Source: a virus. From it: a stretch of 21,050 nt of DNA. Each line of letters opens with the position of its first letter. Positions within the stretch are counted from its first letter, which is position 1. This document shows positions 7,459-12,349 of the stretch, in pieces. The notes beneath the pieces were generated by a model. The model had not been told where the DNA came from. It made no database searches and saw only the letters and a program-made list of their open reading frames with translations. Position numbers and translations under genes: made by a program. The stretch spans positions 1 to 21,050 of IMG/VR virus record IMGVR_UViG_3300044970_000512; one strand, given 5' to 3'.

Positions 7459-7974
7459 ATGAAGATTGTCGTAAGACATTCATACAAAGAAGGAGAGATC
7501 TCGGAGACCCGTACTCTGAGTTTTCTCCCTTTTTATTATACTCATGAGATTACTGAATCCGTTATGAGTGTGATTCAGAATCAACTGAGTCCCGACCTTC
7601 TCACCAAAAAATACCGAGAAGAAAATGTAACAAACCAAATGTATGGTCATTGTTACCATTCAACTCAAGCGTTGTTCTACCTAATGGACACCGATAAGTT
7701 AGTTCCCATGAGTGGAATTGACTATCGGAATGATACTCACTGGTGGTTACAAGATGGTGAAACGATCTACGATGTAACTGCGGATCAGTATTACTCTGTA
7801 GGACAAGTTCCTCCGTATGCAACAGGAAGGAAAACGGCTTGGTATGGTTGGAAACAACGACCACACCAGAGATCTTTGAATCTTATGATGAAAGTTCTCT
7901 ACGCATGTAACATTGAGTATTGTTACGAAACCCTCAAACCTCAGTCAGGTGCCTTGACAGAGTTCCTTGTCTGA
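7459..7974 (+). CDS. Putative Cys-His-Asp (papain/transglutaminase-like) phage protein (171 aa)
   Basis: Start ATG 7459 has a GAGG about 7 nt upstream. The protein contains a conserved-looking trio in the correct order for papain-like or transglutaminase-like folds: Cys65 in MYGHCYHSTQALFYL, His94 in DTHWWLQDGE, and Asp105 in IYDVTADQYY. From memory, G-H-C...HWW...DxTADQ is a recurring arrangement in a phage protein family of unknown function. The length (171 aa) suits a single catalytic domain. Activity (hydrolase, deamidase or none) cannot be decided here. The promoter of the next gene overlaps its last codons. Confidence 0.7.
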   Translation: MKIVVRHSYKEGEISETRTLSFLPFYYTHEITESVMSVIQNQLSPDLLTKKYREENVTNQMYGHCYHSTQALFYLMDTDKLVPMSGIDYRNDTHWWLQDGETIYDVTADQYYSVGQVPPYATGRKTAWYGWKQRPHQRSLNLMMKVLYACNIEYCYETLKPQSGALTEFLV

Positions 7975-7982
7975 TGTATTCT
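7954..7982 (+). promoter_or_regulatory. Consensus sigma70-type promoter overlapping the gene end
   Basis: TTGACA (7954-7959), 17 bp, then TATTCT (7977-7982) followed by GG. This is the closest match to TTGACA-17-TATAAT among the second promoter class. It starts within the final codons of the 171-aa gene and gives a leader of about 67 nt before the ATG at 8056. Confidence 0.68.
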
Positions 7983-8055: not shown

Positions 8056-9222
8056 ATGACTACTAAATCTTATGTGCCCATTGAGGTGCAAATGGTTTGG
8101 GATAAAGTTGCCCAAACTTGTGCCAATCCCCTTGGCATTTCTGAAGAAATCTTGGTACAATCTCTTATTGATTGTCCTGCTCGTGAGTATGAAGGAGCTG
8201 AATTTCTCGGTCGTTATCTGATTCCTCGCATGTATGTGCGTTACGACTTGAGGGAGCAACCCCGTGACAAAAATAACGACGCTGAACATGTTAATGACCT
8301 CTTCAACTGTTATGATGTTGAGGGTTACAAAACAGAATGTCCTCCTCCCATCTGTTGCTTTGATGGAGATGACATGAATCCCACATCACTCAAAGCTCAA
8401 TCTGGTTACAATCGTTTTGAGGCTTTGAGTCGTTATGGTCAAGAACTGTACATCTTTGATGTATACAAGTTTGAATCCCGTTATTGGGAAATTATTGCTC
8501 GTAATGTGAGCAATCACCATAAGAATCCTCAACTGTCACAAAAAACTCCCGATTACATTAAAGAGGTTTGCAACGCAGTAAAAGATAACATCATTGAGGG
8601 TACTGTTGATGCCATCAATGATTTTGTTGACATCATTGCTGCAGATCGTTCTTCCAAGATTCGCAAAAAAATCAAAGTTGAGTGTTACAACAACTGTCAA
8701 GTTTATCCTAACTTTCGTACCTACAACTCTGTTGGTCATTCGGAAAATACTCTGAATGGTTTCATCAAAAAGAATAACTTTGCTAAGCAAGGTATTGAAG
8801 GACGCACTGATTCTGAGTTGATTACTCAAGGATATATTTCCTATTGTTGTGGTGCAGGTAACAACAAAGCTACCTGGGGTCGTGCTCTTGCACATGCTCA
8901 ACGCCTTGGCATTCCTGTGTATATTTTTGGTTATGCACAAAATCGTGTACCAGACCTGCAAAAGTTCCGTGAAAACTTTATCAATGAGTTTAACGAAATG
9001 AAATCATTGATGATTGAATTTGCTGCAGAATTGTGTGATGTGGACGCATCTACTATTGATGACGAAAACTTCCCTATCAAGATCGCTGGATTCCTTGCTC
9101 AATACATTGAGCCTAATCCTCAACATCAGGGTCGCCCTTCTGAGCAAGGTCTGGTAGACATGTATGGTAATTCTGTTAATTTTGACGGAACTCAGCCTTG
9201 TCTGACCCTTACTCAACCTTGA
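8056..9222 (+). CDS. ParB-like domain protein (388 aa)
   Basis: I choose the ATG at 8056 (MTTKSYVPIEVQMVW); an in-frame TTG at 8032 is less likely. Residues about 95-160 (PPPICCFDGDDMNPT, then SGYNRFEALSRYGQ, YIFDVYKFESRY, ARNVSNHHKNPQL) follow the order of the ParB/Srx fold: a P-I strand, the G-x-x-R-x-x-A box (here SGYNRFEAL, 116-124), and a downstream N-x-x-H/R segment. The C-terminal half contains YCCGAGNNKATWGRALAHAQ and a strand GIPVYIFGYA, and I cannot assign it. ParB-fold phage proteins may bind or nick DNA or use CTP. It lies directly before an endonuclease and a methyltransferase, so a DNA-processing role is plausible (inference). Confidence 0.65.
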   Translation: MTTKSYVPIEVQMVWDKVAQTCANPLGISEEILVQSLIDCPAREYEGAEFLGRYLIPRMYVRYDLREQPRDKNNDAEHVNDLFNCYDVEGYKTECPPPICCFDGDDMNPTSLKAQSGYNRFEALSRYGQELYIFDVYKFESRYWEIIARNVSNHHKNPQLSQKTPDYIKEVCNAVKDNIIEGTVDAINDFVDIIAADRSSKIRKKIKVECYNNCQVYPNFRTYNSVGHSENTLNGFIKKNNFAKQGIEGRTDSELITQGYISYCCGAGNNKATWGRALAHAQRLGIPVYIFGYAQNRVPDLQKFRENFINEFNEMKSLMIEFAAELCDVDASTIDDENFPIKIAGFLAQYIEPNPQHQGRPSEQGLVDMYGNSVNFDGTQPCLTLTQP

Positions 9223-9280
9223 TCCATAAGGATTTCTGATCGTTAAGCCCCTTGCCCTCCCCAGGGGTAGGGGGTATTCT
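9220..9280 (+). promoter_or_regulatory. Hairpin plus sigma70-type promoter
   Basis: CCTTG...TAAGG makes a weak 5-bp hairpin at the gene end, followed by CTGATC, then AGCCCCTTGCCC. The -35 is TTGCCC at 9252-9257 and the -10 is TATTCT at 9275-9280, 17 bp apart. AGCTTTG follows the -10. The unit is nearly the same as that at 10659-10725, so the two promoter cassettes are related copies. Confidence 0.72.
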
Positions 9281-9303
9281 AGCTTTGTAATGAGATTTCT
9301 ACG

Positions 9304-9825
9304 ATGTCTTTCACCTGTCCCTGTTGTAAAGTAGAAAAATCAGAAAATAATTTTGTAATGTCTGATCTTGGGTTTCCCTTGATTTCAATTTGCAATGAAT
9401 GTTCTGATGAACATTTTATTACAAAAGTTGATTGTACTTGTTCAGTATGTAAGAGGAAACTTCCTCATACTTATTTTCAACATTATCGTACAAGATTTAA
9501 GAAAAATGGTAAACGGTTGCGGGTAAATACCAACTGCAAAGATTGTTCAAAGAAAGAATCTGCAATCGTAACCAAACTTAAAAAGGAACATCCAGCCCCT
9601 CCTTACTTGACACCTTGTTATCAATGTCGTAGGATTTGTTATGAAAAACGAGAAGACATTCCGGAAGGTGTAGATGGTACAAATGGTCCGTGGCAATGTG
9701 ATCATGACCACAAGACAAAAGAGTTTCGTGGTTACTTATGTAAATTATGTAACACTGGAACTGGAATGATTGGTGATAATGTAGAGTATTTCCAGATAGC
9801 TGTAAAAAACAAAAAATCGAAATGA
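9304..9825 (+). CDS. Endonuclease VII-like (HNH/His-Me finger) nuclease with zinc ribbons (173 aa)
   Basis: The C-terminal half (PCYQCRR, CDHDHKTKEFRGYLCKLCNT, GMIGDN) matches the recombination endonuclease VII family: a zinc site from CxxC at 105-108 and CxxC at 146-149, and the catalytic D-H-D-H at 133-136. The N-terminal 80 residues add two more Cys clusters (CPCC...CNEC and CSVC...CKDC) that look like zinc ribbons not present in T4 gp49. The family cleaves branched DNA or acts as a nicking or homing nuclease. It is coupled to the methyltransferase gene by an ATGA overlap, so it could instead be the nuclease half of a modification/cleavage pair. Which one is right is inference. Confidence 0.82.
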   Translation: MSFTCPCCKVEKSENNFVMSDLGFPLISICNECSDEHFITKVDCTCSVCKRKLPHTYFQHYRTRFKKNGKRLRVNTNCKDCSKKESAIVTKLKKEHPAPPYLTPCYQCRRICYEKREDIPEGVDGTNGPWQCDHDHKTKEFRGYLCKLCNTGTGMIGDNVEYFQIAVKNKKSK

Positions 9826-10658
9826 ACTTGAATCAAATCATCACCTCAGACAACATTGAGTATCTCAAAACACTTCCAGATGAATGTATTGATCTTGTCG
9901 TAACTTCTCCGCCCTATGATGAACTTAGGGACTATAATGGATACACTTTGGATCTTCATGGTCTGGGTGAACAACTCCTGAGAGTTCTCAAGGACGGTGG
10001 AATCTGTGTGATGGTGATTCAAGATTCTACGAAGGATTTTGCAAAGTCCCTTACATCTTTCCGCACGATCGTTGACTGGTGTGATAACATTGGATTCAGG
10101 CTATTTGAATGTAACATTTATCACCGCCAAGGAACTGAGGGTGCATGGTGGAAAAAGAGATTCCGTGTCGATCATGAATACATGCCTATCTTTCTGAAAG
10201 GTAAGAGACCTCAGTATTTCGACAAGGAAAATATAAAAATCCCATCGAAACATGCCAATAAAGTAATGACTGGTGCAAACATTCGCACCAAGAATGGTAA
10301 AACTGGTTCTCGTAAAGTTAAAATCAATCCGACAAAGTGCCCTGGTACTGTTATGACCTTTGGGAATACTTGTGGAGGGGAAAGTAAACTTAAAAGTCAA
10401 CATCCCGCAGTATTCCCAAACATGTTAGCTTATGACATGATTGAATGTTTCTGCCCTCCTGGTGGTGTGGTTCTCGATCCTTTTAATGGGAGTGGAACTA
10501 CTACACTTGCAGCCAAATGTCTTGACCGAAATTACATCGGAATTGACGTTTCTGAGGAATACAATAACATTGCAATGCAACGATTGCAAACTGAAAGTAT
10601 TGTTAGGAAAACTCAAGTCCAAGAAGAAAAAACAAAATCAATTTTTGACATTAGTTGA
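9822..10658 (+). CDS. Beta-class DNA methyltransferase (N4-cytosine or N6-adenine)
   Basis: Catalytic motif IV is TSPPY (28-32) and the AdoMet-binding motif I is DPFNGSGTT (219-227), followed by YIGIDVSEEY (238-247). Motif IV before motif I is the beta-class order. TSPPY is more frequent in N4-cytosine enzymes and also occurs in N6-adenine enzymes. HPAVFP at 194-199 is another family signature. At 278 aa it is a complete enzyme without an obvious specificity subunit, so target recognition probably lies in the region 100-190. It may protect phage DNA from host restriction or tune expression. The start overlaps the nuclease stop, and a hairpin follows the stop codon directly. Confidence 0.9.
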   Translation: MNLNQIITSDNIEYLKTLPDECIDLVVTSPPYDELRDYNGYTLDLHGLGEQLLRVLKDGGICVMVIQDSTKDFAKSLTSFRTIVDWCDNIGFRLFECNIYHRQGTEGAWWKKRFRVDHEYMPIFLKGKRPQYFDKENIKIPSKHANKVMTGANIRTKNGKTGSRKVKINPTKCPGTVMTFGNTCGGESKLKSQHPAVFPNMLAYDMIECFCPPGGVVLDPFNGSGTTTLAAKCLDRNYIGIDVSEEYNNIAMQRLQTESIVRKTQVQEEKTKSIFDIS

Positions 10659-10680
10659 CCTTATCTATTGGATAAGGTTT
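10659..10680 (+). terminator. Hairpin at the end of the methyltransferase gene
   Basis: CCTTATC (10659-10665), loop TATTG, GATAAGG (10671-10677) form a perfect 7-bp stem starting at the base after the TGA, followed by only three T. It could act as a weak terminator or as an RNA processing or stability element. A related, less perfect hairpin sits before the promoter at 9252. Confidence 0.5.
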
Positions 10681-10696
10681 CCTGATCCAAGAGCCC

Positions 10697-10725
10697 TTGC
10701 CCCGTCTGGGGTAAGGGTGTATTCT
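10697..10725 (+). promoter_or_regulatory. Sigma70-type early promoter
   Basis: TTGCCC (10697-10702), 17-bp spacer, TATTCT (10720-10725), then AGCTGT. It has the same CTGATC...AGCCC context as the promoter at 9252. The predicted start near 10732 means the in-frame TTG at 10733 would be almost leaderless, which supports the ATG at 10748 as the helicase start. Confidence 0.75.
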
Positions 10726-10747
10726 AGCTGTATTGAAACGCAATTTC

Positions 10748-11974
10748 ATGATTCTTCGACCACACCAACAACGCGCAGTTGATCTGATGCAACTGCACCG
10801 AAAAGGTCAGATGGTGATGCCTACTGGAGCCGGCAAAACTCCGACGATGAGTTTTGATGCAAAGCTTCAATTTCATTGTGGTTATTCGGAACAAACTATT
10901 GTAGTGTGTGCTCCACGCATCCTTCTGGCTAGCCAGTTGTGTTCTGAGTTTCTGGAGTTTATCACCAACGCAAGTGTGATGCACGTCCACAGTGGTGAAA
11001 CGCATCACTTTTCGACTACCAAACCTCAAGAGATTGTTGATTGGTGGGTGAACACTCGCGGTCACAAACTGATCTTCACCACTTACAACTCTCTGGATCG
11101 ACTGCAGCAATCTCGCATCAAAGTTGATACCATCTACTTTGACGAAGCTCACAACTCCGTCAAACGTAATTTCTTCCCTGCAACTGAATACTTCAGTCAC
11201 GAAGCTGACCGTTGTTACTTCTTCACTGCGACTCCCAAACATTCTCTCGCAGTCGGTAAGCCTGGGATGAATGATCCTGAGGTTTATGGTCAGGTGATTT
11301 GTAATGTTCCTGCACCTGAACTTGTGCAAGGTGGTTACATCCTCCCTCCGAAAGTTCTTGCAAAACAACTTCCTATGGTCAAGTCGGGTAAGATTCCTGC
11401 GGATCGGGATTGCACCAATCTGATTGAAACTCTGGATGAATGTGGTAAGGACAAGGTGTTGATCTGTGCGAAAGCTACCAAACAGATCTCTGCACTGATG
11501 TCTGAGACCGACTTCATTCAACAGTTGCAAGATCGTGGGTTTTCCTATCTTTACATCACTGCAAAGACGGGTGCAATTATTGATGGTCAGAAGGTGAACC
11601 GTGAGGTATTCTTTGAGACCCTAAGTGCGTGGGGTAAGGATGACAACAAGAAGTTTGTTGTGCTACACCATTCTATCCTCTCTGAGGGTATCAACGTCTC
11701 TGGACTTGAGGGGGTGATCTTTATGCGGTCTATGGACTACATTGGTATCTCTCAGACCATTGGCCGTGTGATCCGTATGCACCATGATGATGCAGCTCGC
11801 ATCCGTAGTGGTGAACTGATCCCTGGTGATGTTGACAACTACACTAAATCTTTCGGTCTGGTTGTTGTTCCTGTCTTCAACAAAGTGGGAATCTCTACTC
11901 ACCAAAAGATCCAAGCTGTGGTCGATACGATCTTCCAACAAGGAATGCCCGCTATTTCCGTGGTAAAACGATAA
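10748..11974 (+). CDS. Superfamily 2 DNA/RNA helicase, UvsW/type III restriction-like (408 aa)
   Basis: The motifs appear in order: Walker A PTGAGKT (25-31), motif Ia APRILLASQL, DEAH (132-135), TATP (160-163), SEGIN (312-316) and motif VI QTIGRVIRMH (336-345). These define an ATP-driven SF2 translocase of the UvsW/ResIII type. T4 UvsW is about 500 aa with an extra N-terminal DNA-binding domain. Here the helicase core starts at residue 1 (MILRPHQQRAVDLM), so that domain is absent. UvsW itself unwinds branched recombination intermediates. With an endonuclease VII-like gene upstream, a role in processing branched DNA or in replication restart is plausible. The stop codon sits inside the hairpin with the late promoter. 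Confidence 0.88.
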   Translation: MILRPHQQRAVDLMQLHRKGQMVMPTGAGKTPTMSFDAKLQFHCGYSEQTIVVCAPRILLASQLCSEFLEFITNASVMHVHSGETHHFSTTKPQEIVDWWVNTRGHKLIFTTYNSLDRLQQSRIKVDTIYFDEAHNSVKRNFFPATEYFSHEADRCYFFTATPKHSLAVGKPGMNDPEVYGQVICNVPAPELVQGGYILPPKVLAKQLPMVKSGKIPADRDCTNLIETLDECGKDKVLICAKATKQISALMSETDFIQQLQDRGFSYLYITAKTGAIIDGQKVNREVFFETLSAWGKDDNKKFVVLHHSILSEGINVSGLEGVIFMRSMDYIGISQTIGRVIRMHHDDAARIRSGELIPGDVDNYTKSFGLVVVPVFNKVGISTHQKIQAVVDTIFQQGMPAISVVKR

Positions 11975-12004: not shown

Positions 12005-12349
12005 ATGGAATCCGATTTCTTATTTGAAGGATTAAAATCTATGAGTAATCCGACAAAAGAAGAACTTGAAGCTGAGGGTGCAAAATATACCCAATCTAAA
12101 GCTGCTGGTGCTTATCCAGGATACAGAAAAAATAGTGAGGAAACTAAAAGAAAAATTAGTGAATCACTAAAGGGCAATGTCCCCTGGAACGCTGGTAAAA
12201 AAGGTCTTCAAACTCACTCAGAAGAAACCAGAGAAAAGATGCGACTATCTCATCTGAAGTATGAAACCGAAGAAGAAAGAATTGCTGCCAGAAGAGAATC
12301 TTACAGAAAACAAAACGAAAAACGCAAACTCAAAAAACAAAAATCATGA
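12005..12349 (+). CDS. NUMOD3-motif DNA-binding protein (114 aa)
   Basis: I start at the ATG at 12005 (MESDFLFEGLKSM); an in-frame TTG at 11993 is possible. The middle contains NUMOD3-type sequence: SEETKRKISESLKGN, WNAGKKG, then SEETREKMRLSH. NUMOD3 units are DNA-binding helices of GIY-YIG and HNH homing endonucleases. No nuclease domain is present, and the C-terminus is a Lys/Arg/Glu-rich helix (RRESYRKQNEKRKLKKQK). It may be a stand-alone DNA-binding protein or the leftover tail of a homing endonuclease. The late motif just upstream suggests expression independent of the helicase. Confidence 0.75.
   Translation: MESDFLFEGLKSMSNPTKEELEAEGAKYTQSKAAGAYPGYRKNSEETKRKISESLKGNVPWNAGKKGLQTHSEETREKMRLSHLKYETEEERIAARRESYRKQNEKRKLKKQKS

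What the first reader, a model, noticed from the sequence alone, without database searches (positions are those of the whole stretch)
8056..11974. Island of ParB-like protein, endonuclease VII-like nuclease, methyltransferase and helicase
Four DNA-acting proteins follow each other in three transcription units, the middle two coupled by a 4-nt overlap. Two units have nearly identical hairpin-plus-TTGCCC promoters, which suggests the units were assembled or spread as cassettes. Methyltransferase plus nuclease plus helicase with a ParB-fold protein recalls the parts list of restriction or defence systems, and of anti-restriction or superinfection-exclusion modules. It could equally be a set of recombination enzymes. 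The added N-terminal zinc ribbons of the nuclease and the missing UvsW N-domain make both unlike their T4 namesakes.
Basis: inference. Interest (0 to 1): 0.62.

Follow-up and report, generated by a model that had tools for sequence, protein, structure and literature searches.

The report
Restriction-modification-like cassette in cyanophage
In a virus of cyanobacteria, a mobile two-gene cassette that looks like a bacterial restriction-modification system (a DNA-cutting enzyme plus the enzyme that marks DNA as 'self') sits between two long-standing neighbour genes, which would let a lytic virus cut host or rival DNA while sparing its own; the cutting has not been tested.

Summary
The four genes are real and correctly placed, but they are not one four-part system. 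P1 (8056-9222) and the helicase (10748-11974) are an old neighbour pair: 28 of 33 P1 loci with enough downstream DNA have uvsW 80-113 bp on, none with the other two genes. P1 has no sequence-family hit, but its AlphaFold model (pLDDT 77) matches ParB/Noc/KorB, so 'ParB-like' holds. The helicase is the normal short cyanophage UvsW. The nuclease and methyltransferase (9304-10658) are a coupled, horizontally spread pair: 26 of 28 close methyltransferase loci have the nuclease directly upstream. The nuclease family's best solved relative is restriction enzyme Hpy99I (E 1e-10), not T4 endonuclease VII (E 0.57); a euryarchaeal contig carries the pair among cellular genes. Best reading: a type II restriction-modification-like cassette. 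It lies between two stem-loop promoters of different ancestry, and a relic of another phage's gene end marks the downstream join, resembling known T4-type 'PeSL' shuffling. Cleavage, specificity and protection are untested; a homing nuclease with a cargo methyltransferase is the main rival.

The parts
7459..7974 (+). conserved gene on the upstream side of the slot (phrog_12251)
7954..7982 (+). promoter-like element TTGACA-N17-TATTCT overlapping the end of the upstream gene, in front of P1
   Evidence: sequence; same element in relatives L008, L070, L072, L077
8056..9222 (+). P1, ParB/Srx-fold protein (ParB-like domain about residues 40-215 plus a C-terminal region without a match)
   Evidence: invariant Q68 P69 R70, G117, R120
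9247..9284 (+). stem-loop promoter, copy 1 (class found after P1-type genes), now in front of the nuclease
   Evidence: same class in L077 and L088
9304..9825 (+). Hpy99I-like beta-beta-alpha-metal nuclease with zinc ribbons; D133 H134 H136 R142 N150
9822..10658 (+). beta-class N4/N6 DNA methyltransferase (TSPPY, later DPFNGSGTT), overlapping the nuclease by 4 nt
10671..10685 (+). GATAAGGTTTCCTGA: relic of the last codons and stop (DKVS*) of the upstream gene (window homologue at 7459-7974) as it is in empty-slot phages; recombination scar
   Evidence: L071, L075, L086, L089, L098
10693..10729 (+). stem-loop promoter, copy 2 (empty-slot class), the promoter of uvsW
10748..11974 (+). UvsW-type helicase, short cyanophage form, backbone gene

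Best explanation
The island is a backbone pair (ParB-fold P1 followed by uvsW) into whose intergenic stem-loop promoter a mobile two-gene restriction-modification-like cassette has been inserted. The likely mode of action, inferred: the methyltransferase marks a short DNA sequence on the phage genome, so virion DNA enters the next cell already protected; the Hpy99I-like nuclease, made from the same promoter and overlapping the methyltransferase gene by 4 nt, cuts the unmarked sequence in host or co-infecting phage DNA. Loss of the cassette would expose unmarked progeny, and cutting of rivals would favour its spread by recombination between stem-loop promoters. Shown: coupling of the pair, its spread, relation to R.Hpy99I, intact catalytic residues, position between two promoter copies of different ancestry, the scar. 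Inferred: cleavage, shared specificity, protection, targets.
For: Nuclease-family profile: best PDB match is restriction endonuclease Hpy99I, E 1e-10 over profile positions 42-169, against 0.57 for T4 endonuclease VII. The shorter type-B nucleases score 62 bits against Hpy99I and 30 against the homing enzyme F-CphI. PADLOC type II REase model, E 4.7e-4. Of 28 loci whose methyltransferase is at least 82% identical, 26 have the nuclease ORF directly upstream, one is cut by the contig end just after the nuclease tail, one lacks it. The methyltransferase target region is nearly invariant across both nuclease types. Horizontal spread: 95% methyltransferase, 70% helicase and 40% DUF6267 protein identity between the window and L042. 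The pair lies next to OTCase, UbiA and ATP_bind_1 genes in a euryarchaeal MAG contig (L206), as a cellular R-M locus would. In PMC6083498 methylase adjacency is the ground for calling Endo VII-motif enzymes restriction enzymes. Empty and filled slots compared directly.
Against: No recognition sequence or activity is known. The longer type-A nucleases, the window's kind, score about equally weakly against Hpy99I and F-CphI (21 and 27 bits). The position near uvsW in five of 25 non-redundant contig groups besides the window would also fit homing. The L206 contig may be mis-binned and holds runs of N. R-M pairs in lytic phages are uncommon (own knowledge).
Confidence: 0.6

Rival explanations
1. 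The nuclease is a free-standing homing endonuclease of the Endo VII-motif (DHHRN) family, like F-CphI of cyanophage S-PM2. It cuts a site near uvsW in phages lacking the cassette and is copied in; the methyltransferase is cargo or blocks self-cutting.
For: F-CphI is a proven homing enzyme with this motif in a cyanophage (PMC6083498); the profile matches F-CphI at E 1.3e-9. Cassette copies lie directly upstream of uvsW in L044, L047, L064 and the window and downstream in L042 and L048. Nuclease without the methyltransferase occurs next to uvsW (L024) and near it (L037).
Against: Near-constant coupling to one methyltransferase, stronger match of type B to R.Hpy99I, and most cassette loci show no uvsW within the DNA held.
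Confidence: 0.25
2. All four proteins form one defence or exclusion system: a ParB-fold NTP switch, a helicase, a nuclease and a methyltransferase acting together.
For: ParB-fold or ParB-like proteins recur directly upstream of uvsW in cyanophages, and an unrelated ParB-like gene is next to uvsW with a nuclease of this kind in L037 and L024.
Against: P1 and the pair co-occur only in the window; no P1 locus has the pair and the reverse.
Confidence: 0.08
3. A set of recombination enzymes: junction resolvase plus UvsW.
For: T4 endonuclease VII and UvsW both act on branched DNA (own knowledge); the Endonuclease_7 core is present.
Against: Weak match to T4 endonuclease VII (E 0.57), almost nothing after the core where T4 has its dimerisation region, optional occurrence, coupling to a methyltransferase.
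Confidence: 0.05

Closest known systems
R.Hpy99I and its methylase, type II restriction-modification (Helicobacter)
   Same: zinc beta-beta-alpha-metal nuclease with the DH-H-R-N residues; gene next to a methylase (PMC6083498)
   Different: phage-borne, nuclease first with 4-nt overlap; specificity unknown; an extra N-terminal zinc ribbon in the window's type
F-CphI, Endo VII-motif homing endonuclease of cyanophage S-PM2
   Same: cyanophage, same catalytic motif, one zinc ribbon, small size
   Different: F-CphI sits beside the intron-containing psbA and has no annotated methyltransferase next to it
Chlorovirus methyltransferase/restriction endonuclease pairs
   Same: lytic virus with adjacent pair; thought to degrade host DNA while own DNA is methylated (PMC7019647)
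   Different: eukaryotic host; nucleases packaged in the virion; homology to this nuclease not examined
PeSL promoter stem-loops of T4-type phages (Arbiol 2010, Comeau 2014; cited in PMC4503421)
   Same: sigma-70-like promoter plus stem-loop between genes in a variable region; recombination between copies shuffles genes
   Different: here the hairpin lies across the -35 box and spacer; the original papers could not be read here
Orphan ParB-CTPase-fold proteins of phages (PMC12704722)
   Same: ParB fold with conserved QPR and GxxR motifs, plus a further C-terminal region
   Different: not recognised by Pfam or PHROGs; fixed next to uvsW

Membership tests
Type II restriction-modification system | nuclease related to a known type II restriction enzyme, catalytic residues intact | tested here: met
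   Hpy99I E 1e-10; D133 H134 H136 R142 N150 invariant in 18 sequences
Type II restriction-modification system | adjacent DNA methyltransferase, linkage conserved | tested here: met
   26 of 28 loci; SPPY and FxGxG motifs invariant
Type II restriction-modification system | same recognition site for both enzymes; methylation blocks cleavage | not testable with these tools
   needs enzyme assay and methylome
Endo VII-motif (DHHRN) homing endonuclease | DHHRN residues | tested here: met
   motif as given in PMC6083498
Endo VII-motif (DHHRN) homing endonuclease | optional gene between conserved genes, empty alleles exist | tested here: met
Endo VII-motif (DHHRN) homing endonuclease | cuts the cassette-free allele at one long site | not testable with these tools
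   needs cleavage assay
T4 endonuclease VII resolvase | full-length relation to T4 gp49 including the region after the core | tested here: not met
   only profile positions 128-154 match, E 0.57; protein ends shortly after the core
ParB-CTPase fold | fold | tested here: met
   top 25 PDB fold matches are ParB, Noc, KorB, PadC, pNOB8 ParB; best E 1e-5, prob 1.00; then sulfiredoxin
ParB-CTPase fold | nucleotide-binding motifs | tested here: met
   QPR 68-70, G117 and R120 invariant in 28 sequences; NTP binding itself untested
ParABS partition system | ParA partner and parS sites | not tested
   not searched systematically
UvsW helicase | phage UvsW-type helicase family | tested here: met
   phrog_16 E 1.5e-62; relatives annotated UvsW in S-CAM9 and S-SCSM2R
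PeSL element | stem-loop plus sigma-70-like promoter, structure conserved | tested here: met
   20 copies, 3 of 7 consensus pairs with double changes
PeSL element | terminator and promoter activity | not testable with these tools
   needs reporter assay

The most novel reading that the evidence does not exclude
The slot just upstream of uvsW in T4-like cyanophages is a dedicated conflict locus in which fast-diverging ParB-fold switches, methyltransferases and restriction-type nucleases replace or join each other, with UvsW as the constant partner, forming a phage-versus-phage exclusion system.
Probability: 0.2. Interest if true: 0.75.

Novelty: new variant of a known kind. Interest (0 to 1): 0.52.

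Why it matters
Complete restriction-modification pairs in lytic phages are uncommon; if active, this one would show how a lytic cyanophage marks its DNA and cuts rivals or host, and could explain some of the many 'orphan' methyltransferases in cyanophages. The empty, half-filled and filled alleles give a directly testable case of cassette insertion at a promoter stem-loop. The P1-uvsW pairing gives an orphan ParB-fold family a fixed genomic partner.

Tried and rejected
P1 by sequence: no Pfam, PHROG, NCBIfam, PADLOC or convincing PDB sequence match. First P1 model from 9 close sequences was poor (pLDDT 58) and matched nothing; it was replaced by the 28-sequence model. Single P-SSM2 protein as query found no relatives in viral contigs. 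Helicase against PDB by single sequence: no match. Two PeSL papers not held. A first guess that all slot genes are unrelated cassettes was weakened: profile comparison links P1 with S-T4 gp029 and P-SSM2_038, and L076-type with L092-type. A motif test (GxHR-like box) favours ParB-like genes in the slot (5 of 13 families against 4 of 68, p 0.004), but the pattern was chosen after seeing the sequences.

Full report
What is there. The window is a 21,050-base virus record from a T4-like cyanophage: its helicase matches 419 phage records, nearly all Synechococcus, Prochlorococcus or 'cyanophage'.

P1 and uvsW are a backbone pair. P1 relatives were found in 37 viral-contig loci (some contigs are near-duplicates). 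Of the 33 with at least 300 bases downstream, 28 have uvsW 80-113 bases after P1, and none has the nuclease or methyltransferase. The same order is in Synechococcus phages Sf-CH5 and Sf-CH8. P1 has no sequence-family match, but a model from 28 relatives (pLDDT 77, residues 9-215 mostly above 80) gives ParB, Noc, KorB, PadC and pNOB8 ParB as the first 25 PDB fold matches (best E 1e-5), followed by sulfiredoxin. The ParB-typical Q-P-R (68-70) and G..R (117, 120) are invariant. Orphan ParB-fold proteins are common in phages and bind CTP, ATP or GTP (PMC12704722); what P1 does is not known.

The place before uvsW is a replacement slot. Between the conserved gene at 7459-7974 and uvsW, relatives have nothing but a promoter (L071, L075, L086, L087, L089, L092, L098), P1, or other genes, many of 300-460 aa and several with a ParB-like box: L096-, L076-, L072-, L083-type, and L080-type one gene further up. 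Other cyanophages have ParB-like genes directly before uvsW too (P-SSM2_038, L124, L024, L037). Profile comparison joins some of these into a diverged family. The L083-type protein carries an HNH domain and matches the PADLOC defence model NsnA, E 8e-18.

The nuclease-methyltransferase pair is the inserted part. The pair occurs in many viral contigs with the nuclease first and, in most of the window's type, the same 4-nt overlap. Two nuclease types about 40% identical (with and without the first zinc ribbon) precede methyltransferases that remain at least 82% identical, with a near-invariant target region. Identities between the window and L042 are 95% for the methyltransferase and 70% for uvsW, so the pair has moved between lineages. 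No isolate in the phage collection carries a close copy: the best rows there are 42% (methyltransferase) and 34% (nuclease over most of its length). In L044, L047 and L064 the pair itself is directly before uvsW, in L042 and L048 after it.

Why restriction-modification. The nuclease profile finds R.Hpy99I first (E 1e-10) and T4 endonuclease VII only at 0.57. The methyltransferase is a beta-class enzyme whose best solved relatives are cytosine-N4 methyltransferases; the modified base is not settled, as CcrM-like adenine models also score. A euryarchaeal MAG contig, L206, holds both genes beside OTCase, UbiA and ATP-binding genes, though binning error is possible. The published analysis of this nuclease superfamily uses an adjacent methylase as the sign of a restriction enzyme. 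Chloroviruses are the precedent for a lytic virus with such pairs, thought to degrade host DNA.

How it got there. Copy 1 of the stem-loop promoter (9247-9284) matches the version that follows P1 in L077; copy 2 (10693-10729) matches the version of empty-slot phages such as L071, including 15 bases (10671-10685) that are the last codons and stop of those phages' upstream gene. The pair therefore lies exactly between two promoter elements of different descent, with a scar on the uvsW side. The stem shows compensatory changes at 3 of 7 consensus pairs across 20 copies. This is the behaviour described for PeSLs in T4-type phages (original papers not held).

Limits. Contig sampling is redundant and uneven; the ParB call for slot genes other than P1 rests on motifs, weak profiles and one post-hoc test. 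No activity has been measured. The choice between restriction and homing is a matter of likelihood, not proof.

Noticed in passing
window 12005-12349: 114-aa ORF with a NUMOD3 motif (E 1.6e-11), a DNA-binding module of homing endonucleases, directly after uvsW; a second trace of mobile elements at this locus.
   Followed up: no
L083 1453-2832, also L084, L093, L095, L097: 459-aa protein in the slot with a C-terminal HNH domain and a PADLOC NsnA match; possible phage-borne defence nuclease.
   Followed up: partly
L160 1616-2143 (phage S-SM2): Gene annotated 'restriction enzyme type II R/M system 1' lies two genes before uvsW, followed by a 379-aa protein with a DQQHSLTALL stretch directly before uvsW.
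   Followed up: partly
L206 591-2797: In the euryarchaeal MAG contig the methyltransferase comes first and is followed by several zinc-ribbon units before the nuclease core; part of the contig is masked.
   Followed up: partly
L136, L138, L143, L100: Other DNA methyltransferases (NPPY type) a few hundred bases before uvsW in further cyanophage contigs.
   Followed up: no
window 10659-10677: Short inverted repeat CCTTATC-TATTG-GATAAGG just after the methyltransferase stop; its right arm is part of the relic.
   Followed up: no
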